64,000 bases of DNA from Falsirhodobacter flavus (lineage in GTDB: Bacteria; Pseudomonadota; Alphaproteobacteria; Rhodobacterales; Rhodobacteraceae): positions 186,001 through 250,000 of the forward strand of contig JARWBI010000003.1 in assembly GCA_029846755.1 (NCBI GenBank), in the 5' to 3' direction. Under the pieces are notes generated by a model, which did not search any database, had not been told where the DNA came from, and worked only from the letters and a program-made list of their open reading frames with translations. Numbering within the stretch: position 1 is the first letter of the stretch; every line of letters begins with the position of its first letter. Position numbers and translations under genes: made by a program. Below, piece by piece: positions 44,152 to 59,909 of this stretch.

Positions 44152-44162
44152 GTTCCCCGATT

Positions 44163-45200
44163 TCAACCGCCCGTGCAAAAGCGGATGCCAAGGCAATCGC
44201 GAATGCCGTCCAGCATCGCCATCGTCCCGAGCGAGGCATCGAGGGTTCGGCAACCCGTCTCGGTCCGGCCCGCCGCGATGGCGCGGGCAACCTCGGCGGC
44301 TTCAAAGAACAGCCCTTCGAAATGCGCGCCGCGCGGTTCTTCATACCGCAGCACGCGGCTTCCATCGCGCGACCAGACCTCGAATGATCCGGGCAGGTGG
44401 AATTCGGTGGTAAAGCGTATCGATCCTTCCGTGCCGACGATGGCGGCGTTGGTGGGGGTGAAGCCGTAGAGCGTCGTCGCCATGGTGCCGATCGCGCCTG
44501 CGTCGTTCTGCATCGCAACGGCAAGCTGCCCGTTGACGCCGCTCGGATCCGGCTGACCCAGTCCGACGATGCGGCTCGCAGCACCCAGCAGCTTTTCGAT
44601 CAGCGAAACTGGATAGGTGCCCAAATCCAGGAGTGGCCCACCCGCAAGCGAGGCATCGAAGATGCGGTGATCGCGCGGCAGAAATTCCCCGTATTCGGTA
44701 TAGACAGAACGGATGTCGCCGATGATCCGGCGATCAAGCACCTGTTGCAGCACGTCGAATTTGGGCAGGAAGTAAGTCCAGACCGCCTCGGCGAAGAAGA
44801 CGCCCTTGCGGCGGGCGGCTGCGACCATCTCGGCGGCCTGTGCGTGGTCCAGCGCCATCGGCTTTTCAACCAGCACATGTTTGCCCGCCTCGATCGCCAA
44901 AAGCACATGGGCATGATGTATCGTGTGGGGGCTGGCGACATAGATCACGTCGATCCGGGGGTCCGACACCAGCGCCTCATAGCTGCCATGGGGCATGTCT
45001 ATGCCCCATTTCGCGGCGAAGGCTTGCGCCGAGGCGGGGCTGCGGGAACCGACCGCCTCGATCCGCTGCGTGGAATGTGCGCGGACCGATTCCACGAATT
45101 TGGCCGCGATCCAGCCGGTTCCCAGAATGCCCCACCGCAGGACGGGGGCTTGTGCCGCTGCAGGCACGCGCGATTTGGGCAATGCGTCAGGAAAGCCCAT
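44163..45200 (-). CDS. Gfo/Idh/MocA-family oxidoreductase
   Basis: A 345-residue dehydrogenase: Rossmann RWGILGTGWIAAKFVES, EKPMALDHAQAAEM, and the dimeric-dihydrodiol/xylose-dehydrogenase-like block AVWTYFLPKFDVLQQVLD with GGPLLDLGTYPVSL. That layout is nearer to glucose-fructose oxidoreductase/dihydrodiol dehydrogenase than to IolG. The ATG at 45200 overlaps the stop of the frameshifted gene upstream. Substrate unknown. Confidence 0.85.
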   Translation of the reverse strand: MGFPDALPKSRVPAAAQAPVLRWGILGTGWIAAKFVESVRAHSTQRIEAVGSRSPASAQAFAAKWGIDMPHGSYEALVSDPRIDVIYVASPHTIHHAHVLLAIEAGKHVLVEKPMALDHAQAAEMVAAARRKGVFFAEAVWTYFLPKFDVLQQVLDRRIIGDIRSVYTEYGEFLPRDHRIFDASLAGGPLLDLGTYPVSLIEKLLGAASRIVGLGQPDPSGVNGQLAVAMQNDAGAIGTMATTLYGFTPTNAAIVGTEGSIRFTTEFHLPGSFEVWSRDGSRVLRYEEPRGAHFEGLFFEAAEVARAIAAGRTETGCRTLDASLGTMAMLDGIRDCLGIRFCTGG

Positions 45201-46361
45201 CAGACAGTCTCCCATGTCCTGGTGGAAAGCGAGCGTTCCATCGCATCGATGATGCGTTCGTTCGCAAGGCCGAAGTCGAAGTTCGGATAGCAGTCGTCGC
45301 AGCGCATGATCCCCTCGATCAGGTCGCGCACCTCGATCACCTTCACGTCGTAGTATCCAAGGCCGCCACCGGCAAAGTCGAAGCCGAAGAAGGCCGAGAA
45401 TTGCGGCACCTGACTGCCCGCCAGCAGCGTCTTGAACCCGCGATCGGCTTTGGCATCGTCGAAACGAGAGATCTTCAGCTCGTTGAAGCGCTCTCCGTCC
45501 ATGATGATCGTGCCCTTGGTGCCGGATACCTCCCAATAGACGCCGAACACCTTGCCCGCCGAGACGCGCGATGCCTCGATGGTCCCGCCAGCGCCGCTGG
45601 CGAAACGGACCAGAGCCTGGATCTGATCCTCGTTCTCCACCTCGGCGCGCGGGGCATCGGCGCCCGCCTTGGCGCCATAGCCCGAGCCGTCCTGGGGCAG
45701 CGGACGCGTGGGAAAGAACGTCTGCGTCTGCGCGATCACGCTTTCCACATCGCCCATCAGGTATTGCCCGACCGAGATGACATGGCTGCCCAGATCGCCC
45801 AGCGCCCCCGAGCCCGCGCCCTTGCGCGTGCAGCGCCACGAGAAAGGCAGTTCGGGATCGTTGAAGAACCCTTGGTCGAACCAGGCGCGGAACCGCATCG
45901 GAGTGCCGATGTCGCCCGCATCGATAAGCTGTTTCGCCAGCATCGCGGCGGGGGTCTTGATGTTGTTGAAGGCCACCATCGTCTTGACGCCCTTGGCTCG
46001 GGCGGCGGCGGCCATCTCCTCGGCCTCGGCCAGCGTGACGGACAGGGGTTTTTTGGCAATAGACGTGCTTGCCCGCTGCGATCGCCGCCAGCGCCATTTC
46101 GTGATGCATCGCGTTGGGCGAAGTGATGTCCACCACATCCACATCCGGGTCGTTCACCAATGCGCGCCAATCGCCGGTGCTTTTGGCGAAGCCGAAGCGC
46201 GCGGCGGCGGCCGCCGCCAGCTCCGGTGTCGCATCCGCCAGCATATAAAGCTGCGGGATCGCCGGCAGGTCGCGATATAGCATCGCCGCCCGGTGGAAGG
46301 CATCTGCGTGCGCCTGCCCCATGAAGCCTGTGCCGATCAGGCCGATGTTCAGCGTTTTCAT
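45200..46361 (-). pseudogene. Frameshifted Gfo/Idh/MocA oxidoreductase
   Basis: Residues 1-97 read from the ATG at 46361 (GLIGTGFMGQAHADAFHRA to GKHVYCQK). The rest continues in another frame (PLSVTLAEAEEMAAAARAKG to the stop at 45200). The break is in a run of six A followed by four C (minus strand; plus-strand 46045-46054), where one base is extra: deleting one A restores YCQKPLSV, the family motif. The remaining protein would be about 386 residues and shows no other damage. This may be a recent mutation, a sequencing error, or a site of transcriptional slippage. Overlaps the iolE-like gene by 4 bp. Confidence 0.8.
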
Positions 46362-47245
46362 TCCATAGCCCCTGCAAAAAGACTTGTGACATGTGTGAAG
46401 GCGCGGCTGACGGCGGGCAGCGGCGGTGCCTTGGCGGGGTCCTGCTCGGCCTCCACCACCAGCCAGCCGTCATATCCCTGCTGGACGAACCGCCGGATCG
46501 CTGCGAAATCGACGGCACCGTCGCCCGGCACGGTGAACATGCCGGAACGGACGCCCTCGTTGAAGCTTCGATCCTCGGCGCGGATACGGTCCATGACGGG
46601 GCGGCGCACATCCTTCAGGTGGATGTGGACGATCCGGTCGCCGAACCGTTCGATCAGCCGGGCATAGTCGAACCCCGCCCCCGCCGCATGGCCGGTATCC
46701 AGAAGCAACCCCACCTCCGGCCCCGTTCGGTCGAACAGCGACGAGATTTCATCGAATGTCTCGGCGACCATCATCAGGTGGTGATGATAGGCAAGCGTCA
46801 GCCCGTATTCCCCTGCCAACCTTGCACCGAAATCGGTCAGGGCAGCGGCATAGCCCGCCACGTTTGCCTTTGGCATCAGCAGACGCTGCGACATCGGCGC
46901 ATCCAGCGGCGCGCCGGGGGTCATCATCGCCACCTCGCCATAGACCATGATCCGGCATCCCATGTCGCGCAGCAGCGTGGCATGTGGGGCAACGGCATCC
47001 ATCTCCTGCCCGGGGCTTCGGGCCGCAAGTTCGCCTGAATGCCAGCCCGAGGCCAGAGAAAGCCCATGCGTTTCCAGCAGCGGCCCCAGAACCGCAGCAT
47101 CGCGCGGGAACTTCCGCCCCAGTTCGACGCCTTGATATCCGGCCGACGCGGCCTCGTGAAGGCAGGTTTCAAGCGGGATGTCGCGGCCAAGATCCTCCAG
47201 CACGTCGTTGGCCCAGGACAGCGGGCTGACCGCCAACCGGATCAT
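46358..47245 (-). CDS. Second iolE-like enzyme (myo-inosose-2 dehydratase family)
   Basis: A 295-residue TIM barrel with the IolE blocks LASGWHSGEL, LAYHHHLMMV, LLLDTGHAAGAGFD, IHLKDVRRPVMDRIR, FNEGVRSGMFTVPGDGAVDF and GWLVVEAEQD. It is a clear paralogue of the iolE at 30733 but diverged, and is embedded with three Gfo/Idh/MocA genes. It may handle a different inositol isomer, for example scyllo- or chiro-inositol. Confidence 0.88.
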   Translation of the reverse strand: MIRLAVSPLSWANDVLEDLGRDIPLETCLHEAASAGYQGVELGRKFPRDAAVLGPLLETHGLSLASGWHSGELAARSPGQEMDAVAPHATLLRDMGCRIMVYGEVAMMTPGAPLDAPMSQRLLMPKANVAGYAAALTDFGARLAGEYGLTLAYHHHLMMVAETFDEISSLFDRTGPEVGLLLDTGHAAGAGFDYARLIERFGDRIVHIHLKDVRRPVMDRIRAEDRSFNEGVRSGMFTVPGDGAVDFAAIRRFVQQGYDGWLVVEAEQDPAKAPPLPAVSRAFTHVTSLFAGAME

Positions 47246-48240
47246 GCCGCCACCTCCATCCGCACTGCCTGCCCCGTTCGCATGGACGCCGTCGCCGCCT
47301 CGGCCAGCCGCTGCGCCTCCAGCCCGTCGCGCATTCCGGCAAGGGGCTGGGTGCCCGTCTCGATCAGATCGACGAAGGCCGCCATCTCATCGCGATAGGC
47401 AGCGGCGAAGCGTTCCATGAAATAATTCAGCGGCGGCGCATGGTGGAACCCCTGTGCGTCCGCAAAGGTCACACCGTGGCGCGGTCGGTTTTCCACATAC
47501 AGCACCTCGTTCGCGCAAATAGCCTCCAGCCGCTGGTCATACCCAAAGGGCGCGCGGCGGCAATTCACCATTTGCACCAGCCGTCCCGAAACCGAGGTGA
47601 GCGTGATCATTGCCGTGTCGATATCTCCAGCCGCCCCGATCTCCGGATCGATCAGGCAGCGGCCCACGGCATAGACGGTGGCGATCTCTTCGCCCAGCAG
47701 ATAGCGGGCCATGTCGAAATCATGGATCGCCTGATCGATGAACATCCCGCCTGACCGTTCGACATAGGCGCGCGGCGGCGGCGACGGATCGCGCGTGTGC
47801 ATCACCACATGTTCCAGCCGCCCCGCCTCTCCGCCCGCGATCCGGTCGCGCACCATGCGGAAATCGGGATCGTAGCGGCGCTGGAACCCCATCAGGCAAG
47901 GGGTGCCCGCCGCTTCCACCGCCGCCGCGACCTGCTGCACCGTCTGGAAATCGAGGCTGACGGGTTTCTCGCAGAACACCGCCTTCCCCGCTTGCGCCGC
48001 CCGCAGCAGGAAATCGGCATGCGTATCGGTGGAACTCGCGATGACCACCCCTGCCACTGCGGAGTCGGCAAAGGCACGGTCCGCATCGACCACCTCGGCC
48101 CCGGTCTGCGCCGCCAGCGCGTCACGCGCGCCAGGCAGCGGGTCGACGATATATTTGACGCGCACCCGCGAATGCGCGGCGGCGTTCAGCGCATGCACGT
48201 GGCCGATGCGGCCCGCACCGAAAATGGCAAGATCGATCAT
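47242..48240 (-). CDS. iolG: Inositol 2-dehydrogenase (IolG type, second copy)
   Basis: A 332-residue Gfo/Idh/MocA enzyme with typical IolG motifs: IFGAGRIGHVHALN, FCEKPVSLD, GFQRRYDPDFRMVR and SGGMFIDQAIHDFDMARYLLG. The last holds the Asp/His active-site residues. First gene of a minus-strand operon, divergent from the LacI gene at 48331. Coupled to the iolE-like gene (ATGA). Confidence 0.9.
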   Translation of the reverse strand: MIDLAIFGAGRIGHVHALNAAAHSRVRVKYIVDPLPGARDALAAQTGAEVVDADRAFADSAVAGVVIASSTDTHADFLLRAAQAGKAVFCEKPVSLDFQTVQQVAAAVEAAGTPCLMGFQRRYDPDFRMVRDRIAGGEAGRLEHVVMHTRDPSPPPRAYVERSGGMFIDQAIHDFDMARYLLGEEIATVYAVGRCLIDPEIGAAGDIDTAMITLTSVSGRLVQMVNCRRAPFGYDQRLEAICANEVLYVENRPRHGVTFADAQGFHHAPPLNYFMERFAAAYRDEMAAFVDLIETGTQPLAGMRDGLEAQRLAEAATASMRTGQAVRMEVAA

Positions 48241-48294
48241 GGAAGTCCTCCCAAACTTGCGAGGAGGATAACGGGACGATAAGGAGTGGAAACA

Positions 48295-48316
48295 TCATCC
48301 TTGATGAGATTTCATC
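48295..48316. promoter_or_regulatory. Overlapping palindromes in the iolG/LacI divergent region
   Basis: TCATC-CTT-GATGA (48295-48307) is followed by TCATC after a further 4 bp (48312-48316), giving two overlapping inverted repeats that share the GATGA arm. They lie between iolG (start 48240, minus) and the LacI start at 48331 (plus). The location favours an operator for the LacI protein acting on both promoters. Confidence 0.5.
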
Positions 48317-48330
48317 AGAGAGGGCATCAC

Positions 48331-49368
48331 GTGCCTGCAAAGACGACCGCGAAAGACGTCGCCGCCGCAGCGGGGGTTTCCACCGCCACGGTCGACCGCG
48401 TCCTGAACAACCGTGGCGGGGTCGCCCCGGAGAAGGAACGTCTGGTCCTTGAATGGGCACGCAAGCTGCGACTGGACCGGGCGATGGACCAGAGGGCCTC
48501 GCGGACCCTGCGGATTGCCGTCGCCATCCAGCCTCCCGACAACCCCTTCCATGCCGCGTTGCAGGAGGCGTTCAACGCGGCCTACCGCCTCTATCCTCAG
48601 TTCAACATGCAATTCCGTGTCCATCACATCTCTGCCCGATCCGGGAAAGAGACGGCACGGCTCATCTCGAATGCTGCAGATGACCATGATGGTATCGTCA
48701 TCATCGCCCCGCAGGACGATGATGTGATCGCCTCGCTGAGAAAGTTTCAGGCCGTCGGCAAACCGATCCTTACCCTTGCCACCGATATCGGCGGACTAAG
48801 CGGGCACCGCTATGTCGGTCCCGACAACCGTCAGGCCGGGCGGGTCGCAGGCGACATCATGGGCAGGCTTCTCGGAAAGGAAGGGGGCAGGATCATCGTT
48901 GTCGTCGGCATGCTCAGCATGACCGGCCATGCAGAACGCGAGCACGGATTCCGCGCCGTTCTGAAGGAACGCTATCCCAATTGCCACGCACTGCCCCCGA
49001 TCGAAAGTTTCGAAATTGCCGAACGGGCGGGGGATATGGTCTTCGACCTTTTGCGCAGGGATGCGGGAATCCGTGGGATTTACAACGCATCTGCCGGCGT
49101 TGAGTCGGTTGCCGCCGCGATGCGCGCTCTTGGCCGTGCCGAGACAATCTTTGTCACCCATGAACTGACCGAAGCCCGTCAGCGGCTGGTCAAAGAGGGT
49201 TTGATAGATGTCATCATAGATCAAAACCCGCATCTGGAGGCGCAGATCTGCATCGCAACCATCGCATCGCATTTCGGACGCCATCAGGGAAGCATTCCCG
49301 ACGCAGCAACTGGTCTTCGAATCTGCATGATGGAAAACTGCGAAATGTCGCGGTTTTCAGAATTGTGA
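48331..49368 (+). CDS. LacI-family regulator of the second inositol block
   Basis: A 345-residue regulator: helix-turn-helix TAKDVAAAAGVSTATVDRVLNNRGG and a sensor domain (RIAVAIQPPDNPFHAALQEAFN; HRYVGPDNRQAGRVAGDIMG). The GTG at 48331 is preferred: AGAGAGGG lies just upstream, and earlier ATGs (48286, 48304) would put the candidate operator inside the gene. It probably controls the divergent operon at 44163-48240. Confidence 0.85.
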   Translation: MPAKTTAKDVAAAAGVSTATVDRVLNNRGGVAPEKERLVLEWARKLRLDRAMDQRASRTLRIAVAIQPPDNPFHAALQEAFNAAYRLYPQFNMQFRVHHISARSGKETARLISNAADDHDGIVIIAPQDDDVIASLRKFQAVGKPILTLATDIGGLSGHRYVGPDNRQAGRVAGDIMGRLLGKEGGRIIVVVGMLSMTGHAEREHGFRAVLKERYPNCHALPPIESFEIAERAGDMVFDLLRRDAGIRGIYNASAGVESVAAAMRALGRAETIFVTHELTEARQRLVKEGLIDVIIDQNPHLEAQICIATIASHFGRHQGSIPDAATGLRICMMENCEMSRFSEL

Positions 49369-49859: not shown

Positions 49860-50698
49860 GGGTCAGGACCCATTGATCTTGGTGGCTTACGCTGATTCAT
49901 TCGGCGCTCAGGAGGCCACTGATGAGCAATCTTTTCTGGCTCACCGACGCGCAGATGGCGCGGCTGCGCCTCTATTTTCCGAAGTCACATGGCCGGCCTC
50001 GTATCGATGACCGGCGTGTGCTGAGCGGGATAATATTCGTCAACCGCAATGGGTTGCGGTGGCGTGACGCGCCCCCGGGAGTATGGCCCGCCGAAGACGC
50101 TCCATAACCGTTGGAAGCGGTGGAGCGATCTGGGCGTATTCGCACGGATCATGGCAGGGCTGGCCGCTGAAGCGACGTTCCCAGCACGGTGATGATCGAC
50201 GCGACCTATCTGAAGGCGCACCGCACGGCGAGCAGCCTACGGGCAAAAAAAGGGGGCGCGGACGGCTGATCGGACGCACGAAAGGCGGCATGAACACCAA
50301 GTTGCATGCTGTCTGCGATGCCGAGGGAAGGCCGATCCGCATGTTCATGACCGCCGGGCCCACCAGCGATTACACCGGGGCGGCTGCTCTGCTCGACAGC
50401 TTGCCCGAGGCAGACTGGCTTCTGGCCGACAGGGGTTATGACGCGGACTGGTTCCGCAGCGCCTTGCAGGACAAGGGGATCAGGCCCTGTATCCCGGGCA
50501 GAAGGTCACGGGCAAAGTCCGTGAAATACGACAAACGCAGATATCGCCGCCGCAACCGCATCGAGATCATGTTCGGCAGGCTGAAGGACTGGCGCCGCAT
50601 CGCCACGCGCTACGACAGATCACCAAAGGTCTTCCTCTCAGCCGACGCACTCGCCGCAACCGTCATGTTCTGGCTGTGATGAGAATGAGTCCTGACCC
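49860..50698 (+). mobile_element. IS5-family insertion sequence (IS427-type), 839 bp
   Basis: Bounded by imperfect terminal inverted repeats: GGGTCAGGACCCATT at the left end and, read inward from the right, GGGTCAGGACTCATT (one mismatch in 15). Each end is flanked by TA (49858-49859 and 50699-50700), the target duplication typical of this group. The transposase reading frame fills the interior. The element lies between the inositol region and the LysR-carboxylesterase operon. Confidence 0.9.
49922..50679 (+). pseudogene. IS5/IS427-type transposase with programmed and disabling frameshifts
   Basis: OrfA begins at 49922 (MSNLFWLTDAQMARL, GRPRIDDRRVLSGII) and is thrown out of frame at a C5 run (50072-50076), reaching a stop at 50107. 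Homology continues one frame over (EYGPPKTLHNRWKRW), then returns to the original frame near 50180 (VMIDATYLKAHRTASSL). At A7G (50245-50252) a -1 shift gives the OrfB frame (RGRLIGRTKGGMNTKLHA to the stop at 50679), the usual programmed frameshift. The DDE residues in IDATY, DRGYD and RRNRIE are present. The two extra shifts would block transposase production. Confidence 0.82.
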
Positions 50699-50829: not shown

Positions 50830-51732
50830 TCAGCCGACCGTGGCGGCGCAGTCCTTGAGGGCGGCGATGAGCTGCGTCACCAGAGGGTTGGCCGGACGTC
50901 CCACAGGCGTGATGATCCCCCAGCGGAACGGGATGTGGACGGCCAGCGGGATCTGCACGACATCGCTTGCCGGCAGCCCGGCCGAGGTCAGGGACTCCAC
51001 GACCGCAACGCCCAGCCCTGCGCGGGCCAGCGCGATCGACACGAAGGACGCGTTGCTGTCGAGCACCCGCGCAGGGATCACGCCTGACCCTTCCAGCGCC
51101 TCGTTGATCGCGCGGCGCAGGCGATGGGGATTGTGGGTGGTGATGATGCGTTCCTGCGCCAGATCTTCTGCCGTGATGACGCTTCGCGTCGCGAGGCGGT
51201 GCCCCGTCGCGACGACGGCGATGCAGGCGACCTCGGCCGTCCAGTGAACCTCCAGCCCCGGATGATCCAGCGGCAGGGTCGTCAGGCCAAGGTCCGCCGT
51301 CTGGGCAGCGACGGCCTGCACGATGTTCTCGGCGGCCATGCTGTTCAGGTGGATGCGATCGGGCAGGTCCGCAGGGTCCAGACGGGCAAGCGCCGCCGGA
51401 ACCACCCCCGCCGCCAGCGAGGGCAGCGTGGCGACATGGATCGGCAAAGGCGCCCCACCCCCGATCGCACGGCCACGCGCACCGATGGTGCGAAGGCCGC
51501 TCAGAAACAGGTCGGCCTGTTCATGGAACGCCAGCCCCTGCTGGGTGGGTGTGATGCGCGGACCATTACGATGCAGAAGCGCGAAGCCCAGCTCCTCCTC
51601 CAACTCCTGGATCAGCCGCGTGATCACGGATTGCGACCGGCCAAGCGCCTTGGCCGCCCCGGTCATCGACCCGATCGAGACGACGGCGACGAAAGCTTCC
51701 AGCTGTTTCGTGTCGAGATAGTTCGGGTCCAT
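50830..51732 (-). CDS. LysR-family transcriptional regulator
   Basis: A 300-residue LysR protein: N-terminal winged helix (LEAFVAVVSIGSMTGAAKALGRSQSVITRLIQELEEELG) and an effector-binding domain. The ATG at 51732 overlaps the carboxylesterase stop (TGATG), so unusually the regulator is the last gene of the operon it probably controls. The 35-residue upstream extension lies inside the esterase gene and is rejected. Confidence 0.88.
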   Translation of the reverse strand: MDPNYLDTKQLEAFVAVVSIGSMTGAAKALGRSQSVITRLIQELEEELGFALLHRNGPRITPTQQGLAFHEQADLFLSGLRTIGARGRAIGGGAPLPIHVATLPSLAAGVVPAALARLDPADLPDRIHLNSMAAENIVQAVAAQTADLGLTTLPLDHPGLEVHWTAEVACIAVVATGHRLATRSVITAEDLAQERIITTHNPHRLRRAINEALEGSGVIPARVLDSNASFVSIALARAGLGVAVVESLTSAGLPASDVVQIPLAVHIPFRWGIITPVGRPANPLVTQLIAALKDCAATVG

Positions 51733-53168
51733 CAGCCAGCCTCGGTCCAAAGGGCGGTTCGCGTATCGAAGGGGTCGCGCTCGACCGCGATATAGCCGGA
51801 ACGAAGCCGCAGCACCGACCCTTGTGGGCAGGGCCAATTGCTGTGCCCATGGATGAACGCAGCCCAGAAATCATGCACGGCCACGGCAAAGGCGGTATCC
51901 GTCACCCGCTGCCGTTCGGGTTGCAGGGCAAGGTCCATCCCCTGCCGATACCAGACGGCGCCGACCTCCGCCCCATGCGGGGCGCCGGTCTCGTCCGCGC
52001 CGTCCGGGCCATAAAGGTATTTCCAGACGGGCTGGCCGCGCCGATGCAGACGCGCGAAACGGGTCGCGGGGTTCTGGAACACCAGATCGCCCGCCACCGC
52101 GCGCCAGATGCCGTGGGGCGTGTGATCTGGCAGCGCCGCGCGATAACGCTGGACGATGTCGTCCCCGGTCAGGCGCAGTGGACGCACCCTTTCATGCAGC
52201 AGGGCCGCAACAGCCGCGAAATCCAACGCGGCAGGCAAGGCCGTGGAATGGGTCAGATATTCGGCGGTGGTGCAGCCGATCATCATCGGCACGGGCGCAG
52301 TCCGTCCCTGCCCCGCCGCGTCTTCGGGATGCAGCGGCAGGCTGTCCGTCCCGCAGATCGGAACGAACGGCACCCCAAGCATCGCTGCCGCGCCGTCGCG
52401 GTCGAAATCGTGCCGTTCATAGCTTTCGTTGCAGAGGTCGCGCTGGGCCACCAGAAGGTCCGCCAGCGCCGCCTCGCGCGGGTCCACGCCAAGCGCACTG
52501 CGCATCCGCGCGGCCAGCTTTTCGGCGTCGGTCTCCGTTGCGATCCCCGTGGATGCCCCGCTTTGCGGCATCGCCCGCGCGAACAGCCCATGGGCCGCCG
52601 GCATCGCCAACAGCGCCGCCACGGCGAAACCACCCGCCGAGCGTCCCGCCAGCGTCACCCGCGCCGGATCGCCGCCGAAAGCCGCGATGTTGCGCCGCAC
52701 CCAGCCCAGCGCCGCGATCAGATCCAGCAGCCCGCGATTGTCCGGCGCGCCATCGACCCGCAGGAATCCCATCGCGCCAAGACGATAGTTCACCGTCACC
52801 TCGACGATGCCAGACGCGGCGAAGGCCGCCGATTGCAGCACCGGCTCGTTCGCCGATCCCACGGCATAGCCGCCGCCATGCACCCAGACCAGCACCGGCG
52901 CGCTGCCCTCCACCGACGGGGTGCGGATATTCAGCGTCAGAAAATCCTCGCCCGCCGCCAGCGCCGAGGTCGCATTGCGCCCCACCGGCCCGTAGGTCGG
53001 CACCTGCGGGCAGACCGCGCCCAGTCGGGTCGCATCGCGAACGCCCTCCCAAGCAAAGGACTGCGGCGCGTCGAAACGGGTCTTGCTCGTGATCGGCGCG
53101 GCATAGGGCACCGCCAGAAAGGCGTGTCCGTCCCCACGCACAGCGCCGCTGTCGGTCTGGACGATCAT
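51732..53168 (-). CDS. Type-B carboxylesterase
   Basis: A 478-residue esterase of the cholinesterase/carboxylesterase fold. Motifs: EDFLTLNIRTP, the oxyanion VWVHGGGYAVGS, and the nucleophile AGRSAGGFAV (GxSxG with Arg in place of the usual Glu before Ser). The catalytic His is probably in AVAVHDFWAAFIHG. No signal peptide is seen. It would hydrolyse an ester or carbamate bond of an imported compound. Overlaps the permease gene by 4 bp. Confidence 0.87.
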   Translation of the reverse strand: MIVQTDSGAVRGDGHAFLAVPYAAPITSKTRFDAPQSFAWEGVRDATRLGAVCPQVPTYGPVGRNATSALAAGEDFLTLNIRTPSVEGSAPVLVWVHGGGYAVGSANEPVLQSAAFAASGIVEVTVNYRLGAMGFLRVDGAPDNRGLLDLIAALGWVRRNIAAFGGDPARVTLAGRSAGGFAVAALLAMPAAHGLFARAMPQSGASTGIATETDAEKLAARMRSALGVDPREAALADLLVAQRDLCNESYERHDFDRDGAAAMLGVPFVPICGTDSLPLHPEDAAGQGRTAPVPMMIGCTTAEYLTHSTALPAALDFAAVAALLHERVRPLRLTGDDIVQRYRAALPDHTPHGIWRAVAGDLVFQNPATRFARLHRRGQPVWKYLYGPDGADETGAPHGAEVGAVWYRQGMDLALQPERQRVTDTAFAVAVHDFWAAFIHGHSNWPCPQGSVLRLRSGYIAVERDPFDTRTALWTEAG

Positions 53169-53938
53169 ATCGCCTTCCTCAGCCCGATCAGCCGTTCCAC
53201 CAGCACCACCACCGCGACCGAGATCAGGATCAGCACCACCGACAGCGCCGCGATCTGCGGATCGGTGGAATATTCCAGATAACGGTAGATTTCGGTCGGC
53301 AGGGTCGAGGTGCGGATCGACACGATGAACAGCGAGATCGTCGCCTCGTCGAACGAGATCAGGAAGGCGATCACCCCGCCCGCGATCAGGCCCGGGCTGA
53401 CGAGCGGCAGCGTGATGCGGCGGAACACCGTGAAGGGGGATGCGCCATGGACCATCGCCGCTTCCTCGATGCGGCGGTCCACGGCCATCAGGCTCATGGT
53501 GATGGTGCGGACGGTATAGGGGACGGTGATGCCCAGATGCGCCAGCATGATGCCCGCGTAGGTGTCCAGCAGCCCCATCGGCGACAGCACCAGCATCAGC
53601 CCCACCGCGAGCACAATGCTGGGCACGAGGAACGGGGCCAGCACCAGAAAGCCGATGGTATCGCGCCCCCGGAACTTGTAGCGGACCAGCGCCATCGACA
53701 GCAGCATCCCGATGGCGACGGCGATCAGCCCAACGACCAGCCCGATCACCACGCTGCGCCCGAAGGCGGCGATGAAGGCGTCATTGGCGAAAACCTTGGC
53801 ATAGCTGCCGAAGGACCAGCTTTCAGGCGGAAAGGCCAGATACTGCCGTGTGTCGAAGGACACGATGAACACGACGATGATCGGCGCCAGCAGGAACAGA
53901 TAGAGCAGCATCAGGCAAAGGTTGCGGATCGCCTTCAT
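53165..53938 (-). CDS. Polyamine-type ABC transporter permease (PotC-like)
   Basis: A 257-residue permease with about six helices and the EAA loop EEAAMVHGASPFTVFRRITLP. The first helix is LCLMLLYLFLLAPIIVVFIVSF. Coupled with the PotB-like permease (1-bp gap) and overlapping the esterase gene. Typical of spermidine/putrescine, opine or phosphonate-type importers. Confidence 0.9.
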   Translation of the reverse strand: MKAIRNLCLMLLYLFLLAPIIVVFIVSFDTRQYLAFPPESWSFGSYAKVFANDAFIAAFGRSVVIGLVVGLIAVAIGMLLSMALVRYKFRGRDTIGFLVLAPFLVPSIVLAVGLMLVLSPMGLLDTYAGIMLAHLGITVPYTVRTITMSLMAVDRRIEEAAMVHGASPFTVFRRITLPLVSPGLIAGGVIAFLISFDEATISLFIVSIRTSTLPTEIYRYLEYSTDPQIAALSVVLILISVAVVVLVERLIGLRKAI

Positions 53939-53939
53939 C

Positions 53940-54773
53940 CTAGGCCTCCAGCCGGCGCAGCGCGCGTTGATATATGACGATGACAGAGGAGAACAGCACC
54001 AGCAGCATCACTGAAAGCGCCGCCGCCAAGGACCAGTTGAGCGTGACGGTCGCTTCGGAGAACACCTCGGTTCCCAGAACGAACACCCTGCCCCCGCCCA
54101 TCAGCCGCGGCGTCACGAAGGACGAGATTGCCAGCACGAAGACCAGCAGCGCCCCCGTAAGCACCCCCGGCAATGACAGCGGCAGCACGATGCGCCAGAA
54201 CACCCGCAGCGGGTTCGCGCCCAGCATCGCGGCCGCCTCCTCCAGCTGCACCGAAAGCCGCCCGAACCCCGCCAGCATCGCAAGGATGGCATAGGGCATC
54301 AGGATTTCCACCAGCGCCACCGTTGCGCCGAAGCTGTTGTTCGACAGGCGCAGCGGGGTTTCGATGATTGACAGCGATTGCAGCGTTCCGTTTATGACCC
54401 CCCGGTCGCCCAGGATCACCATCCAGCCATAGGTCCGCACCACCGCCGAGGTCAGCAGCGGTGCGACCGCAAGCGCCGTCAGCACCCCCCGCCACCGGCT
54501 GGTCGTCCGTGCCAGAAACAACGCGATGGGATAGGCCAGCACGACCGCCACCCCCGCCACCGTCAGGCCCAGCGTCAGCGTGTTCAGCGCGACCTTCCAA
54601 TAGAACGGATCGACCAGTGCCGCGCGATAGTGGTCCAGCGTGAACCCCACCTGCACCATGGTCGATGTCGAGAAGGATGCGCGCAGCAGCCACGCCATCG
54701 GCAGGATGAAGGTCGCCAGCATTGCAAGCAGCCCCGGGATCAACAGGGCAAGGACCAGCCCGCGATCCCTCAT
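53940..54773 (-). CDS. Polyamine-type ABC transporter permease (PotB-like)
   Basis: A 277-residue permease with EAA loop EEAAAMLGANPLRVFWRIVLP and six predicted helices; first helix LVLALLIPGLLAMLATFILPMAW is followed by a large periplasmic loop. Overlaps the ATPase gene by 4 bp. Forms the heterodimeric channel with the PotC-like protein. Confidence 0.9.
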   Translation of the reverse strand: MRDRGLVLALLIPGLLAMLATFILPMAWLLRASFSTSTMVQVGFTLDHYRAALVDPFYWKVALNTLTLGLTVAGVAVVLAYPIALFLARTTSRWRGVLTALAVAPLLTSAVVRTYGWMVILGDRGVINGTLQSLSIIETPLRLSNNSFGATVALVEILMPYAILAMLAGFGRLSVQLEEAAAMLGANPLRVFWRIVLPLSLPGVLTGALLVFVLAISSFVTPRLMGGGRVFVLGTEVFSEATVTLNWSLAAALSVMLLVLFSSVIVIYQRALRRLEA

Positions 54774-55825
54774 GCCGCCCGCCCGATGAAGGTCACATCC
54801 TCGGGCGCGACGCCCAACGTGACGGTCTGGCCCTTTTCCGGAAGCGCGCCCGCATGGGTGTGCAGGTCGGCCTGAAGCCGCGTTTCGCCCGCGCGCACGG
54901 TCATGGTCAGGATCTGCCCGCGATAGACGATATGCTCGACCGTGCCGGTAAAGCTGTTCGCCGCCCCGCCCATGACCAGCCGATGCGGGCGAACCATCAG
55001 GCGCACGTCCTGCCCGACTGCCGCATCGCCCACGAAACGCAGGGCACCGAAACCGTCCACCGCCGCCTCGCCCGCCGCCGTCACGCGCCCGTTCAGGAAA
55101 TTGCCCGCCCCGATGAAGGACGCGACGAATTCCGTTTCCGGCCTGTCGAAGATCTGGCGCGGGGTGCCGATCTGTTCCAGCCGCCCTGCCGACATCACGG
55201 CCAGACGGTCCGCCATCGACAGCGCCTCGTCCTGATCGTGAGTCACGAAGATCGCGGTGACGCCGGTGCGGCCTTGGATCTCGCGGATCTCGTCCCGCAT
55301 CTCGTCGCGCAGTTTCGCGTCGAGGTTGGACAGCGGCTCGTCCAGCAGCAGCAGTTCCGGCTCGATCACCAGCGACCGCGCGATGGCGCAGCGTTGCTGC
55401 TGCCCGCCCGAAAGCTGGGTGATGCGCCGGTCGCCAAGACCCGACAGCTTCACCAGGTCCAGCGCCCGCGCGACCTTTGCCGCCCGGTCCGCTTTCGCAA
55501 TCCCCCGCATCTCCAGCCCGAAGGCGATGTTCTCGGCCACCGTCATGTGTGGAAACAGCGCATAGGCCTGAAACACCATGCCCATGTTGCGCTTGTAGAC
55601 CGGAATGCCCGACACCTCGCGCCCGTTCAGCCGGATGGAACCGGAGGTCGGCTCCACCAGTCCCGCGATCATCCGCAGGATCGTGGTCTTGCCGCAGCCC
55701 GAGGGGCCCAGCAGGGCCAGCATCTCGCCCCGAGGGAGCGAGAAGCTGACATCATCGACCGAGGGCTTTGCCGCACCGGGATAGGTCTTTACCAGGTTTT
55801 CGACGCTGACATGGCGCTCGGTCAT
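54770..55825 (-). CDS. Polyamine-type ABC transporter ATPase (PotA-like)
   Basis: A 351-residue ATPase: Walker A GPSGCGKTT (about residues 40-48), Q-loop FQAYALFPH, signature LSGGQQQR, Walker B LLLLDEPLSNLD and a C-terminal TOBE-like domain (VRPHRLVMGG). Energises the importer at 53165-54773. Separated by 9 bp from the binding-protein gene. Confidence 0.92.
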   Translation of the reverse strand: MTERHVSVENLVKTYPGAAKPSVDDVSFSLPRGEMLALLGPSGCGKTTILRMIAGLVEPTSGSIRLNGREVSGIPVYKRNMGMVFQAYALFPHMTVAENIAFGLEMRGIAKADRAAKVARALDLVKLSGLGDRRITQLSGGQQQRCAIARSLVIEPELLLLDEPLSNLDAKLRDEMRDEIREIQGRTGVTAIFVTHDQDEALSMADRLAVMSAGRLEQIGTPRQIFDRPETEFVASFIGAGNFLNGRVTAAGEAAVDGFGALRFVGDAAVGQDVRLMVRPHRLVMGGAANSFTGTVEHIVYRGQILTMTVRAGETRLQADLHTHAGALPEKGQTVTLGVAPEDVTFIGRAA

Positions 55826-55834
55826 GACTTCCTC

Positions 55835-56860
55835 TCAGTTGAATGCGATGACTTCGCGGTTTATGCGCTGGATCCATTGCGAATAGACGCCCGAGACCCA
55901 TTGCCAATCCAGCGTCATCTGCGCCGCCTGCGCCTCCGGTCCGCCATAGATGCGCTGCGCGACCTCGGGGGCCAGTTCGACCGTGGTGTTCACCGGGCCA
56001 TAGAAGCTTTTCTCGGCAAAGGTGCCCTGCGCTTCGGCCCCAAGGGCATAGTCGATGAACTTCTTCGCGGCTTCGGCATCGGGCGATCCTTCGACGAGGC
56101 TGATCGCGCTGGTCTGCCCGATGGAGCCTTCGACCGGGGCGGCGACGCCGATGGTCCCGCCCTGCGTGTCGTGCAGATACTGCGCGCGCCCGTTCCAGCA
56201 GATCGACAGGTCCACCTCGCCCGATTGCACCACGGCATAGCAATCCGGCGCGGGCTCCCATGTCAGCACGTTCGGACCGAAGGCGTTCATCGCCTCGATC
56301 GCCGGCTCGATGCTGTCCTTGTAGTTGCCGCCCGCCATCTTGGTCAGGATCGGGATCAGGATCACGCCGCGCGTATCGCCCAGTTTCGCGGCGATGCGGC
56401 CCTTGTATTTCGGGTCGGCCAGGTCGTTCCACGAAGTCGGCGGCTCGGTCACGGTTTCGGTGTTGTAGAGGATCGCAAGATTGTCCTGCGAGAAGGCGAC
56501 GCTGCGGTCTTCGTCGACACGCGCCCAATCGGGGGCCTGCGCGATATTGGGCACGCCCGCCTCGTCAAGCTGGGAGAACAGGCCCGCCTCGTTCGCCTTG
56601 ATCGCCACGGCAATGTCCAGCAGCGCCACGTCGATGGTCGGGTTTGCAGCCTGCCGCGTCAGCAGCGCCAGCGTTTCGGCCGAGTTTTTCGATGGCTGGT
56701 AGTTGACGGTGATGCCGGGGTTCGCAGCCTCGAAGGGTTCGATGATGAACTTCTGGTAATTGTCGGCAAAGACGCCGGAAAATCCGATGACGTTGACTTC
56801 CTGCGCGTATGCACCGCCCGAGGCGAGGAGCGCGGCGAGGGTAAGGGTGATGGCCTTCAT
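55835..56860 (-). CDS. Polyamine-type ABC transporter substrate-binding protein (PotD/PotF-like)
   Basis: A 341-residue periplasmic protein with a signal peptide cleaving after AYAQ at about residue 20. The mature part has VIGFSGVFADNYQKFIIEPFE and the family block FSQDNLAILYNTETVTEPPTSWNDLADP. This is the 2-5-member family of binding proteins for polyamines, iron or opine-like amines. The ligand is not deducible. Located between the dipeptidase and transporter genes. Confidence 0.9.
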   Translation of the reverse strand: MKAITLTLAALLASGGAYAQEVNVIGFSGVFADNYQKFIIEPFEAANPGITVNYQPSKNSAETLALLTRQAANPTIDVALLDIAVAIKANEAGLFSQLDEAGVPNIAQAPDWARVDEDRSVAFSQDNLAILYNTETVTEPPTSWNDLADPKYKGRIAAKLGDTRGVILIPILTKMAGGNYKDSIEPAIEAMNAFGPNVLTWEPAPDCYAVVQSGEVDLSICWNGRAQYLHDTQGGTIGVAAPVEGSIGQTSAISLVEGSPDAEAAKKFIDYALGAEAQGTFAEKSFYGPVNTTVELAPEVAQRIYGGPEAQAAQMTLDWQWVSGVYSQWIQRINREVIAFN

Positions 56861-56870
56861 TTTCGTCTCC

Positions 56871-57872
56871 TTAAACGACGGGTGTCCATGCGGCGTCGAA
56901 AACGCGCAGCCAGTTCAGTCCAAGCAGCTTTTCGACATTCGGCTCGCCCCATCCCCGCGCCAGCATCCGGGCGGTCAGGTTCGGCATGTCGGTCATCCGC
57001 CGCACGCCCTCGGGCTTGTTGATCTTGACGCTGCCGAATTCGGTCAGCTTGCGCGCCGTGCCCTTGTCCTTGTTGGCCCAGAGCAGCCAGTCGGACGGGC
57101 GCGGACGATCGAGCGAGAAGTCGGTGCCGATGCCGACGTGATCTACACCGATCAGGTCGATCACATGCTCCATCGCGTCCAGCACATCCTCGACCGTGGC
57201 GTCGTTTCCGGCCTTCAGTCCCGGCGCAAAGAAGCTGATGCCGACCAGCCCGCCCTTTTCGGCGCAGGCCACGAACAGATCGTCGTCCTTGTTCCGCTTC
57301 ACATCATGCAACGCACGCGGCAGCACATGGCTGATGCAGACGGGGGCTTTCGAGAAGGCGATGGTATCGGCCGAGGTCTTGTCGCCCACATGGCTCAGAT
57401 CGCACAGCACTCCCAGACGGTTCATCTCGGACACGACCTCGCGCCCGAAGCCGGTCAGGCCGCTGTCGTTCTCCTCCAGATATCCTGCGCCGGAATAGTT
57501 CTGGGTGTTGTAGGTCAGCTGCATGATGTTCACGCCCAGATCCTTGAAGATCTCGACATAATCCAGCTTGTCCTCGAGCGGCGAGGTGTTCTGCCAGCCG
57601 AGGATGATCCCCGTGCGCCCTTCGGCCTTTGCGGCGTGGATGTCGGCAACCGTGCGAACGGGGCGCAGGATGTCGTCATTCTCGCGCAGGAACCGTTTCC
57701 ACATGGACACATAGTCGATGCCTTCGCGGAAATTCTCCCACAGCACGGTCGAGACGTTGATGGCGGTCAGCCCGCCTGCGCGCATCTCCTCGAAGATCGG
57801 GCGGCCCCAGAGGCAGGTCTGAAGCCCGTCAACCACGATGGCGCGGTCGTGCAGTGCCTGTGCGTCGCTCAT
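56871..57872 (-). CDS. Membrane dipeptidase (M19 family) with altered metal site
   Basis: A 333-residue M19/renal-dipeptidase-like TIM barrel. The second-half ligands are kept: CDLSHVG, CISHVLPRAL and VGIGTDFSLDR. The first motif, usually DGHND with two zinc ligands, is DGLQT (residues 15-19), and the bridging-Glu region reads LGWQNTSPLE where EG is expected. It may therefore bind one metal or none at that site, so the reaction could differ from dipeptide hydrolysis. No signal peptide. Overlaps the DsbA-fold gene by 4 bp. Confidence 0.85.
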   Translation of the reverse strand: MSDAQALHDRAIVVDGLQTCLWGRPIFEEMRAGGLTAINVSTVLWENFREGIDYVSMWKRFLRENDDILRPVRTVADIHAAKAEGRTGIILGWQNTSPLEDKLDYVEIFKDLGVNIMQLTYNTQNYSGAGYLEENDSGLTGFGREVVSEMNRLGVLCDLSHVGDKTSADTIAFSKAPVCISHVLPRALHDVKRNKDDDLFVACAEKGGLVGISFFAPGLKAGNDATVEDVLDAMEHVIDLIGVDHVGIGTDFSLDRPRPSDWLLWANKDKGTARKLTEFGSVKINKPEGVRRMTDMPNLTARMLARGWGEPNVEKLLGLNWLRVFDAAWTPVV

Positions 57873-58483
57873 GCCGCTTCCTCCTTCACGCGCGCAAGGG
57901 CGCGGGCCACGAAGTCGAGCCTGTCTTGCCCCCAGAACAACTCGTTTTCAACCACATAGGTGGGCGTTCCGAAGATGCCGCGGCGTTCGGCTTCCATCAG
58001 GTTGGCCAGCCAGTCCCCGGCGATATCCGCAGGCTGCGGGTCGCGCACCAAAGCCGCGCCCTCCTCGCCCACCGTCTTCAGCGCCAGGTCCCGCAGCGTG
58101 GCCAGATCGGCGATGTCGCGATCCTCGGCCCAGAGCGCGCGCTGGATGGCAAAGGAAAAGCCGGTCGCGTCGAACCCTGCCTTCTGCACCGCGATCACCG
58201 CCTGCGCCGCCAGTTCGATGGTGCGGCAGGGGTAATGTTTCGGCTTCAGGTTCAACGGGATGCGAAGGTGCTTGCGCCAGCGGTCCAGTTCGATCTCGTG
58301 GTATTTCTGGCGGTAATCCGGGCGCGTGCGCAGCGGGATGCCGCCATTCGCCTCGATGATGCGGATCGGGCGCAGGATCAACCGGGCCCCGGCATCCTTG
58401 GCGATCTGCACCATGCGCTCGGCCCCGAAATAGGCCCAGGGCGAAGATATGCCGTAAAAGGCCTGCAAGACGGGTTCAGACAT
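57869..58483 (-). CDS. 2-hydroxychromene-2-carboxylate isomerase-like protein (DsbA fold)
   Basis: A 204-residue thioredoxin-fold protein of the HCCA isomerase/kappa-GST group. The N-terminal active Ser is in GISSPWAYFGAERM in place of a CxxC, and the C-terminal block is FGTPTYVVENELFWGQDRLDFV. Such enzymes use glutathione to isomerise aromatic-ring-cleavage products, so an aromatic or conjugated intermediate is possible. Overlaps both neighbours. Confidence 0.87.
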   Translation of the reverse strand: MSEPVLQAFYGISSPWAYFGAERMVQIAKDAGARLILRPIRIIEANGGIPLRTRPDYRQKYHEIELDRWRKHLRIPLNLKPKHYPCRTIELAAQAVIAVQKAGFDATGFSFAIQRALWAEDRDIADLATLRDLALKTVGEEGAALVRDPQPADIAGDWLANLMEAERRGIFGTPTYVVENELFWGQDRLDFVARALARVKEEAA

Positions 58484-59909
58484 GGAAAGGCTCCTTCAGG
58501 TCGGCATCCGTCCATTCGTCGCCGAAAAGCTCGGGCGCGGCGAAGTCGCGGAAGTTTTGCAGATGCAGTGCCTCATCCTCGACAAAGATCGAGCGCGCGA
58601 TCCCTTGTGCAAGGCGGGTTGCGCCGTCGCTGATCGACGGCACGCCGCTGGTGATCTTGCCGTGGCTGGGCACGGCGGGATAGGCGAAACAGTGGATGTT
58701 GAAGGCCTCGCCCCCCGCCTTTGGCAGAAATTCGAACGCGGGGCCAAGATAGGGCATCGCGCCGATTCCCTCATGTTCCAGCCCCGGCGGCGGGACATAG
58801 GCATCGCGCCAGAGCCGCACACGCCCGTCAAGGGCGGCAAATTCGGGCCGCTGGGCGAAGTCGACCGAGAACCCGGTCGCGAAGATGGCGAAGTCCACCG
58901 GATAGCGGCCTTTCGGCGTCGTCACCGCGACTGCGCCACTCTCTTCGGCCAGATCGAGGATCGGGCTGGACAGGTGGAACCGTGCATTCGCGTGGCGCGA
59001 GACGCGCAGCACGCTGTGGCGGGGCGGCGGAATCTGCGCCCGCTCGCCTTCCACCATGAAGGCCCATTTCGTGGCATCGGGCAGACCCATATAGCCTTGG
59101 GTCATCCCCTGGCTGCCAATCCCGGTGAACTTGTCGACGCGCGGAATGTCTGGACGGCGGATGAAGATATCGACGCTTGCCGCCCCCGCCTCCAGCGCAG
59201 CGGCGGCGTTGTCCATGGCCGAAGCGCCGGCGCCCACGACTGCGACACGCTTGCCCGCCAGCGCGGCCATGTCGATCATGTCGGCACCATGCGCGACGAA
59301 ACGCCTCGGCACGCGCGCCGCCACCGGCGGCATCGTCGGCGCGCCCAGACCGTCCAGCCCGGTCGCGATCACCACGCGGCGGGCCAGAACCGTCTCGCCC
59401 CCCGCGACCAGTTCGACAAGCGGCCCCTTCGGCGTGACCGAGGTGACGGGCGCATCGTTCTTCACCGGAAGGTTCAGCATCCGGCGATACCAGACGAGGT
59501 ATTCCATCCATTGCTGCCGCGGGATCAGGCCCATCTCGTCCCAGGCCGCCTGTCCGAACTGGGCCTCGAACCATGCGCGGAAGGTCAGGGACGGCAGGCC
59601 GAGGGCCGGACCGGCGGCCTCCTTGCGCGTGCGCAGCGTCTCCATCCGAGCGTAGGTGATCCACGGCCCCTCGCGCCCCGCCGGTGCACGATCGAATGCG
59701 CGGGTGTTCACGATGCCGACGCGCTGCAGGGCCGCCAGTGCAACAAGGCCCATGACGCCCCCACCGATAACAGCGACGTCAAGAACGCCCGGCATATCCG
59801 GCGTCCAGGCCCGGGGCGGAAGGTTCAGCAGTGCCATGTCACGCAGGATCTGCACTTCGAGGTCTGCAAGCGATGCCGGATGTCCGATATTATGATGTGT
59901 ATATCGCAT
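58476..59909 (-). CDS. FAD/NAD(P)-dependent monooxygenase-like flavoprotein
   Basis: A 477-residue flavoprotein. An N-terminal FAD-binding GGGVMGLVAL (about residues 33-42) and a second NADPH-type Rossmann VVGAGASAMDNAAAAL in mid-protein resemble class B flavin monooxygenases. The usual Baeyer-Villiger fingerprint FxGxxxHxxxW is not intact (region reads FVAHGADMIDM). FATGF is the typical late motif. First gene of the operon; ATG at 59909 is preferred to longer upstream starts. It probably oxygenates the imported substrate. Confidence 0.85.
   Translation of the reverse strand: MRYTHHNIGHPASLADLEVQILRDMALLNLPPRAWTPDMPGVLDVAVIGGGVMGLVALAALQRVGIVNTRAFDRAPAGREGPWITYARMETLRTRKEAAGPALGLPSLTFRAWFEAQFGQAAWDEMGLIPRQQWMEYLVWYRRMLNLPVKNDAPVTSVTPKGPLVELVAGGETVLARRVVIATGLDGLGAPTMPPVAARVPRRFVAHGADMIDMAALAGKRVAVVGAGASAMDNAAAALEAGAASVDIFIRRPDIPRVDKFTGIGSQGMTQGYMGLPDATKWAFMVEGERAQIPPPRHSVLRVSRHANARFHLSSPILDLAEESGAVAVTTPKGRYPVDFAIFATGFSVDFAQRPEFAALDGRVRLWRDAYVPPPGLEHEGIGAMPYLGPAFEFLPKAGGEAFNIHCFAYPAVPSHGKITSGVPSISDGATRLAQGIARSIFVEDEALHLQNFRDFAAPELFGDEWTDADLKEPFHV

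What the first reader, a model, noticed from the sequence alone, without database searches (positions are those of the whole stretch)
50830..59909. Eight-gene LysR-esterase-ABC-dipeptidase-isomerase-monooxygenase operon with no known pathway
One continuous minus-strand operon (overlaps or gaps of 10 bp or less) joins a class-B-type flavin monooxygenase, an HCCA-isomerase-like DsbA protein, a variant M19 dipeptidase, a polyamine-type importer, a carboxylesterase and, last, a LysR regulator. The set implies uptake of an amine-bearing or peptide-like, perhaps aromatic, compound, then oxygenation, isomerisation and hydrolysis. I know of no described pathway with exactly this set. Regulator-last order with TGATG coupling is also unusual.
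Basis: partly seen in the sequence, partly recalled or inferred. Interest (0 to 1): 0.72.

Follow-up and report, generated by a model that had tools for sequence, protein, structure and literature searches.

The report
Conserved uptake-and-breakdown operon, possibly sulfur-linked
A nine-gene bacterial operon that seems to import an unknown small molecule and take it apart is real and shared by many distantly related bacteria, and genes that break down the amino acid cysteine keep turning up beside some of its kin, which gives a first testable hint at what it feeds on.

Summary
It is not private to this genome. Of 80 loci fetched with its M19 protein, 62 have the flavin monooxygenase (FMO) within 4 kb, 50 also the HCCA-isomerase-like gene, 37 all nine, with LysR last in 28. 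Halomonas carries it at 91% M19 identity. My paper searches found no described pathway. Two findings change the picture. First, the "dipeptidase" lacks the usual two-metal centre: Gln for the bridging Glu and Tyr for one His in 80 of 80 aligned rows. Second, kin of the operon recur beside cysteine-degrading PLP enzymes: Cds1-like desulfhydrase (with RidA in 7 of 11 loci), inside the operon in three genomes, or a SufS-like protein (21 of 27 FMO-bearing family genomes against 54 of 268 others; 13 within 5 kb). But only 4 of 38 loci of the window's own type show either gene nearby; in this genome it is 210 kb away. Best reading: import and oxidative dismantling of a peptide- or opine-like compound that yields cysteine or a relative. 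Substrate and every reaction are inferred.

The parts
58476..59909 (-). FMO: flavin monooxygenase-like oxidoreductase, 477 aa; first gene of the operon
   Evidence: Pyr_redox_3 / Lys_Orn_oxgnase domains; AlphaFold model pLDDT 88.9 nearest to amine N-hydroxylases and small bacterial FMOs; one match in the genome at E <= 1e-10
57869..58483 (-). HCCA-isomerase-like / kappa-GST-like DsbA-fold protein, 204 aa
   Evidence: PF01323; the only two solved-structure matches are 2-hydroxychromene-2-carboxylate isomerases 2imd and 3fz5; no Cys-x-x-Cys in the sequence
56871..57872 (-). M19-family protein with altered metal centre, 333 aa
   Evidence: PF01244 E 5e-83; nearest structure 2i5g, annotated 'amidohydrolase'; Gln94 and Tyr121 in 80 of 80 and Leu17 in 79 of 80 aligned rows (window plus 79 loci), where canonical members have metal-centre residues
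55835..56860 (-). periplasmic solute-binding protein of an ABC importer, 341 aa
54770..55825 (-). ABC transporter ATPase, 351 aa
   Evidence: ABC_tran + TOBE_2
53940..54773 (-). ABC permease, PotB-like, 277 aa
   Evidence: BPD_transp_1; PotB model 169 bits against cut-off 348
53165..53938 (-). ABC permease, PotC-like, 257 aa
   Evidence: BPD_transp_1; PotC model 157 bits against cut-off 326
51732..53168 (-). type-B carboxylesterase, 478 aa
   Evidence: PF00135 E 3e-78; nearest structure 7w1j carboxylesterase; an M81 gene stands in its place in Terrarubrum
50830..51732 (-). LysR-family regulator, 300 aa from its ATG, last gene
   Evidence: HTH_1 + LysR_substrate; last in 28 of 37 complete loci
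50083..50679 (+). IS transposase (DDE_Tnp_1) just beyond the 3' end of the operon; neighbour, not a member
   Evidence: PF01609

Best explanation
A mobile salvage operon. A LysR protein, probably sensing the substrate or a metabolite, controls an ABC importer and four enzymes. The importer brings in a peptide-, opine- or amino-acid-like compound that carries a sulfur amino acid. The FMO oxygenates it (on nitrogen or sulfur), the kappa-GST/HCCA-like protein rearranges or transfers the oxygenated product with glutathione, and the esterase and M19-like protein release the parts, one of which is cysteine or a close relative. Cysteine is then destroyed by Cds1 plus RidA (inside the operon in some hosts) or by a SufS-like desulfurase with a persulfide dioxygenase (elsewhere in this genome). 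Shown here: the gene set, its conservation, its presence across classes, the altered M19 centre, and the repeated proximity of kin to cysteine-degrading-type genes. Inferred: the substrate, the order of steps, each reaction, and the signal.
For: FMO within 4 kb of M19 in 62 of 80 loci, FMO + HCCA + M19 in 50 of 80, all nine genes in 37 of 80. In three operons of the same type (L079 Frigidibacter MAG; L090 and L091 Rhizobiales) a Cds1-like gene sits between the esterase and LysR on the same strand and its end overlaps the LysR ATG by 4, 20 and 11 bp; the L079, L091 and L136 proteins score 574-580 bits on NCBIfam L-cysteine desulfhydrase Cds1, cut-off 600. L091 also has a RidA gene there; RidA was found (tblastn E <= 1e-15) in 7 loci, each of which has Cds1 (7 of 11). 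Cds1 of M. [quoted passage not shown] Two M19 loci without FMO sit next to a SufS-like (L135) or Cds1-like (L136) gene. In 295 family genomes (same handles) the SufS-like gene is in 21 of 27 FMO-bearing and 54 of 268 other genomes (Fisher one-sided P 2.5e-9), within 5 kb of FMO in 13 of the 21. Of four Cds1-like hits of 73% identity or more, three lie within 11 kb of an FMO gene (in G205 it is the second FMO, not the nine-gene one). This genome has SufS-like, Lrp and Blh-like persulfide-dioxygenase genes in a row on the same contig. Sibling FMO loci use dipeptide-, polar-amino-acid- or TRAP-type importers, which fits small amino-acid-like substrates.
Against: Only 4 of the 38 FMO+HCCA+ABC+esterase loci have a Cds1-like or SufS-like gene within the fetched flanks (L079, L083, L090, L091); in this genome, G150 and G205 the SufS-like gene is 70-210 kb from the nine-gene operon. 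Four of 27 FMO-bearing genomes have neither enzyme at E <= 1e-80 (G079, G083, G126, G273), and two of the 21 SufS-like hits (G138, G263) are only 44% identical and may be another subgroup. Of 15 genomes with a Cds1-like hit, 12 have no FMO match. The loci are related, so P values overstate independence; seven of the 13 close pairs share a spacing of about 1.4 kb. Cds1 and Blh scores fall under their curated cut-offs, SufS far under. The FMO model is nearest to amine N-hydroxylases, which does not point to sulfur. The S. meliloti sibling cluster is reported as nitrogen-responsive (PMC3596328, section 17). A gamma-glutamylcyclotransferase gene was found near one locus only, L035.
Confidence: 0.42

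Rival explanations
1. Catabolism of a sulfur-free nitrogen compound (opine, amine or betaine-like): the FMO N-hydroxylates or N-oxygenates an amine, and the other enzymes open the product for carbon and nitrogen. The cysteine enzymes are unrelated neighbours in shared regions, or handle 2-aminoacrylate-type products from other beta-substituted alanines.
Against: Does not explain why two unrelated cysteine-degrading-type PLP enzymes both recur in separate sets of loci, RidA with Cds1, or their position inside the operon. SBP and FMO matches are at 14-24% identity and do not settle the ligand.
Confidence: 0.32
2. Degradation of an aromatic or ester-type plant or xenobiotic compound by Baeyer-Villiger-type oxygenation followed by ester hydrolysis, with a true HCCA-type isomerisation.
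For: FMO plus carboxylesterase is a classic Baeyer-Villiger pair (recalled); HCCA isomerases are the nearest solved structures of the second gene's product; small bacterial FMOs 4usr and 4a9w are near structural matches.
Against: The recalled FxGxxxH fingerprint is not complete: only the His and its spacing to the second Rossmann motif are kept (by inspection). I recognised no ring-hydroxylating or ring-cleaving gene among the clusters shared by five or more loci (most representatives were judged by eye). The esterase is missing from 12 of the 50 FMO+HCCA+M19 loci (some are cut by contig ends).
Confidence: 0.15
3. Detoxification rather than feeding: the operon disarms an imported or leaked antibiotic-like plant or microbial product.
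For: Patchy and often plasmid-borne; a MATE exporter gene stands in the A. fabrum sibling operon and, by eye, in L047.
Against: Dedicated importers in the operon and, in acetic acid bacteria, a TonB receptor gene directly upstream of LysR in 9 of the 11 loci that have it argue for uptake as food or sulfur source.
Confidence: 0.1

Closest known systems
S. meliloti SMb20278-SMb20285 (LysR, polyamine-type ABC importer, pyridine nucleotide-disulphide oxidoreductase, hypothetical, CMD protein)
   Same: LysR + polyamine-type importer + the same FMO family; the corresponding pSymB locus of strain AK57 has an FMO at 47% identity. Regulation by nitrogen/GlnD is reported in PMC3596328 (section 17 and passages read).
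   Different: CMD and peroxidase-related pair in place of HCCA-like, M19 and esterase; substrate unknown there too. That SMb20280 is the FMO rests on gene order and annotation, not on aligning the strain 1021 sequence.
A. fabrum C58 pAt locus ATU_RS25885-RS25930
   Same: LysR, polyamine-type importer, FMO followed by an HCCA-like gene; HCCA 43% identical, FMO 48% in other A. fabrum records
   Different: CMD and peroxidase-related genes instead of M19 and esterase; octopine/nopaline-dehydrogenase-family gene alongside
M19 protein of PDB 2i5g (P. aeruginosa PA5396; that identity is recalled)
   Same: Nearest solved structure over 324 residues; shares the Gln in place of the bridging Glu and the Tyr in place of His152
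   Different: Its link to glycine betaine genes is recalled, not tested; one search for it in print returned nothing
Mammalian mercapturate pathway (GST, membrane dipeptidase DPEP1, cysteine-conjugate beta-lyase, FMO S-oxygenation; recalled)
   Same: Same enzyme classes: GST-kappa-like fold, M19 family, FMO, and in kin a PLP enzyme of cysteine-degrading type
   Different: Metal centre of M19 altered; gamma-glutamylcyclotransferase near one locus only; no substrate data

Membership tests
M19 membrane dipeptidase (binuclear zinc) | Belongs to the family by profile | tested here: met
   PF01244 279 bits, cut-off 26
M19 membrane dipeptidase (binuclear zinc) | Metal-centre residues His20, Asp22, Glu125, His152, His198, His219 (numbering of human renal dipeptidase, recalled) | tested here: not met
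   Against 1itq the Glu125 position is Gln94 and the His152 position Tyr121, while His161, His182, Arg193 and Asp251 are kept; same in 80 of 80 aligned rows, the window plus 79 of the 80 loci, L155 dropped because its gene reads in pieces. The HxD motif reads L-Q-T after V-D-G in the window (Leu at the His position in 79 of 80 rows, L156 gapped); this part was matched by eye because MAFFT set the canonical HND in a gap
Class B flavin monooxygenase | Two Rossmann GxGxxG-type motifs and ATG[FY] motif (recalled) | tested here: met
   GGGVMG, GAGASA and ATGF (by inspection); fold matches
Class B flavin monooxygenase | FxGxxxH fingerprint (recalled) | tested here: not met
   His207 invariant in 40 of 40 rows, but the F and G positions are absent (by inspection)
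Amine N-hydroxylase (PvdA/SidA type) | Overall fold | tested here: inconclusive
HCCA isomerase / kappa GST | DSBA-like fold without CxxC; activity with glutathione | tested here: inconclusive
   PF01323 and 2imd/3fz5 matches; no CxxC; activity not testable
Polyamine importer PotABCD | Curated NCBIfam cut-offs | tested here: not met
   potA subfamily 338/356, PotB 169/348, PotC 157/326, PotD 54/582 bits
L-cysteine desulfhydrase Cds1 (neighbour gene in kin) | NF052478 cut-off 600 bits | tested here: inconclusive
   574.1, 580.3 and 579.6 bits for L091, L136 and L079, just under the cut-off; the other 8 of 11 not scanned
SufS-type cysteine desulfurase (neighbour gene in kin) | Catalytic Cys loop; curated sufS cut-off 475 | tested here: inconclusive
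   Cys of L047 aligned with that of 5b7s; 129-137 bits for L047, L036 and L176, so SufS-like only

The most novel reading that the evidence does not exclude
A horizontally moving bacterial counterpart of the mercapturate route: import of cysteinyl conjugates (plant or microbial thioethers of glutathione origin), glutathione-type handling, an M19 protein with a rebuilt, possibly single-metal or metal-free centre, FMO S- or N-oxygenation, and C-S bond breaking by Cds1 or a SufS-like enzyme, to win sulfur, carbon and nitrogen.
Probability: 0.12. Interest if true: 0.75.

Novelty: new variant of a known kind. Interest (0 to 1): 0.47.

Why it matters
Nine genes annotated as unrelated bits (dipeptidase, isomerase, esterase, oxidoreductase) form one unit found from Rhodobacteraceae to rhizobia, acetic acid bacteria and Halomonas. 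If the cysteine link holds, it names a class of substrates for a whole family of orphan FMO operons, including those on rhizobial and agrobacterial plasmids, and flags an M19 branch whose 'dipeptidase' label is probably wrong.

Tried and rejected
Rejected: polyamine import as such (cut-offs not met). Rejected: operon private to this genome. Rejected: regulator-last as an oddity. Considered and dropped: glutathione breakdown by gamma-glutamylcyclotransferase, because that gene, with the L035 protein as tblastn query, was found only in L035 itself. Left open: hydantoinase/oxoprolinase neighbours in 5 of 123 loci, the L059 pair nearest to caprolactamase models but under their cut-offs. TonB receptors of the acetic acid bacteria gave only weak or generic matches (TonB-hemin 55.8 bits against cut-off 317 for L039; Plug domain only for L132), so no substrate clue. 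LysR box: a simple scan for T-N11-A palindromes found none upstream of the FMO gene in the window; a GCATAAT-like block near the FMO start recurs in most rows of the nine-locus alignment and was not followed up. DiatB, a structural match at 22-23% identity, is in no held paper. Paper searches returned no paper; the listings of 54, 98 and 105 showed nothing on this operon (listings only, no paper opened). Structural matches of the SBP do not separate ligands.

Gene calling in my scripts is a simple GC-frame heuristic; some called starts and a few ORFs are wrong, so counts by clustering (Cds1-like 11, SufS-like 16 of the 123 loci L034-L156) differ from tblastn counts (Cds1-like 11, leaving out a 25% hit in L145; SufS-like 18). 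The 123 loci include plasmid records that I picked, so they are not a random sample; the 295-genome set is the fairer one. The genome-contig scan found 81 relatives and kept the best 80.
Full report
What is there. The minus strand of 50830-59909 holds nine genes in one run, with gaps of 10 bp or less or overlaps of 1-8 bp: FMO-like oxidoreductase, HCCA-isomerase-like DsbA-fold protein, M19-family protein, binding protein, ATPase and two permeases of an ABC importer, type-B carboxylesterase, and LysR. The contig is 332,862 bases in a 4.02 Mb assembly. The FMO has one match in the genome at E <= 1e-10, and the genome has one other M19 gene, with an intact DGHND motif. Just beyond the LysR gene lies an IS transposase.

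Conservation. Among 295 genomes of the family, 27 have a relative of the FMO at E <= 1e-60. Of the 29 stretches fetched around hits in other genomes, two carry all nine genes in the same order (L040, L041), three have FMO and M19 without this importer (L042-L044; LysR next to FMO in L042 and L043), and the other 24 have the FMO with other partners. A scan of genome contigs with an M19 alignment found 81 relatives and kept 80 loci. In 62 an FMO lies within 4 kb on the same strand, in 50 also the HCCA-like gene (same strand, or divergent within 9 kb), in 38 importer and esterase too, and in 37 all nine; LysR is last in 28 and first in 9. Some loci are cut by contig ends, so these are lower bounds. 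M19 loci come from, among others, Rhodobacter, Frigidibacter, Devosia, Neorhizobium, Rhizobium, Agrobacterium, Chelativorans, acetic acid bacteria, Roseomonas and Halomonas. An Agrobacterium plasmid has the complete set in the same order. The Halomonas copy has all nine genes; it is closer to the G150 copy than the window's copy is for 6 of 9 genes (for instance FMO 84 against 78%, LysR 81 against 66%) and less close for HCCA-like, M19 and one permease. Such similarity between a gammaproteobacterium and Rhodobacteraceae points to transfer; I built no tree. At class level 17 of 385 genomes have an M19 match at E <= 1e-90 (operon content not checked there).

Variants. Partners change with the lineage: M81 in place of the esterase in Terrarubrum; a TonB receptor gene in 11 loci, all acetic acid bacteria by record name, directly upstream of LysR in 9; TRAP transporters near LysR-FMO-M19 in Thioclava, Salipiger and Palleronia; amino-acid-type importer plus a peroxidase-related gene in Pantoea; polyamine-type importer plus CMD or peroxidase-related genes in rhizobia and A. 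fabrum, the latter also with an HCCA-like gene. So the FMO belongs to a broad family of import-plus-oxidation operons, of which this is one well-conserved type.

The M19 protein. The nearest structure is 2i5g, an 'amidohydrolase'. Aligned to human renal dipeptidase, the bridging Glu is Gln94 and the His152 position is Tyr121. Both hold in 80 of 80 aligned rows (window plus 79 of the 80 loci; L155 was dropped), as do His161, His182, Arg193 and Asp251. The HxD motif is Leu-Gln-Thr here; that was matched by eye. The residue roles are recalled. So a canonical binuclear dipeptidase is unlikely, and hydrolysis is an assumption.

The cysteine link. Clustering the called proteins of 123 loci without choosing families beforehand showed two unrelated PLP enzymes as recurrent neighbours: a SufS-like class V protein and a fold-type-II protein. 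Three members of the second (L091, L136, L079) score 574-580 bits on the Cds1 L-cysteine desulfhydrase model, just under its 600-bit cut-off; M. tuberculosis Cds1 makes H2S, pyruvate and ammonia from cysteine (PMC8389258, passages seen). The two sets of loci do not overlap: 11 and 16 of 123 by clustering, 11 and 18 by tblastn. Three loci of the window's own type have the Cds1-like gene inside the operon between esterase and LysR, its end overlapping the LysR ATG by 4, 20 and 11 bp (L079, L090, L091), and L091 has a RidA gene beside it. RidA was found in 7 loci, each with Cds1; RidA clears 2-aminoacrylate, the product of such eliminations (recalled). Two M19 loci without FMO have a SufS-like or Cds1-like gene next door (L135, L136). 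In the 295-genome set the SufS-like gene occurs in 21 of 27 FMO-bearing and 54 of 268 other genomes (P 2.5e-9), within 5 kb of FMO in 13 of the 21. Adding Cds1, 23 of 27 have one or the other. R. etli p42e has SufS-like, Lrp, a Blh-like persulfide dioxygenase and a TauE exporter gene side by side near its FMO, and this genome has SufS-like, Lrp and Blh-like genes together, 210 kb from the operon on the same contig; the Blh-like proteins score 534 and 387 bits against a cut-off of 625.

Results against. In this genome and the two other family genomes with the nine-gene operon the SufS-like gene is 70-210 kb away from it. Of the 38 loci with FMO, HCCA, importer and esterase, only L079, L083, L090 and L091 show either gene in the flanks. 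Four of 27 FMO-bearing genomes have neither, and 12 of the 15 genomes with a Cds1-like hit have no FMO match. Related genomes share arrangements: seven of the 13 close pairs have a spacing of about 1.4 kb. Distinct arrangements seen are directly upstream (G135, G090, G071, G092), one gene upstream (the 1.4 kb group), downstream of M19 (G149), and divergent (G239, L083). The S. meliloti sibling is reported under nitrogen control (PMC3596328, section 17 read).

Conclusion. The unit is a conserved, apparently mobile salvage operon with no described pathway in the papers I could search. The best-supported reading is uptake and oxidative dismantling of a peptide- or opine-like compound that yields cysteine or a close relative; a sulfur-free amine or opine is the main rival. 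The gene-level facts are firm; every reaction is inferred.

Noticed in passing
window 50083-50679 (+): IS transposase (DDE_Tnp_1) about 150 bp beyond the 3' end of the operon, in keeping with mobility.
   Followed up: partly
L176:9238-12150 (G000 contig C33, about 33.2-36.2 kb): SufS-like, Lrp/AsnC and Blh-like persulfide-dioxygenase genes in a row on the same contig as the window, a possible cysteine-to-sulfite route.
   Followed up: partly
L086:17796-20996, L087, L089: A second LysR-FMO pair (53-54% to this FMO) lies just downstream of the complete operon; in L086 it is followed by an oligopeptide-type permease.
   Followed up: partly
L105:7691-9352 and L155: The FMO of Biostraticola reads in two pieces, and several operon genes of Acetobacter papayae read in pieces; decay or assembly errors.
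   Followed up: no
L146-L154: Chloroflexota-type genomes have 40-42% relatives of the altered M19 protein with no FMO match in the fetched stretch, some near enolase-superfamily-like genes (by eye); the same Gln and Tyr are kept.
   Followed up: no
window 43048-49368: Oxidoreductases, a TIM-barrel protein and LacI-type regulators that look like a sugar or inositol catabolic set (by eye).
   Followed up: no
L059:9015-18696: FMO, SufS-like protein, polyamine-type importer parts and a hydantoinase/oxoprolinase A-B pair lie on one strand in close order.
   Followed up: partly
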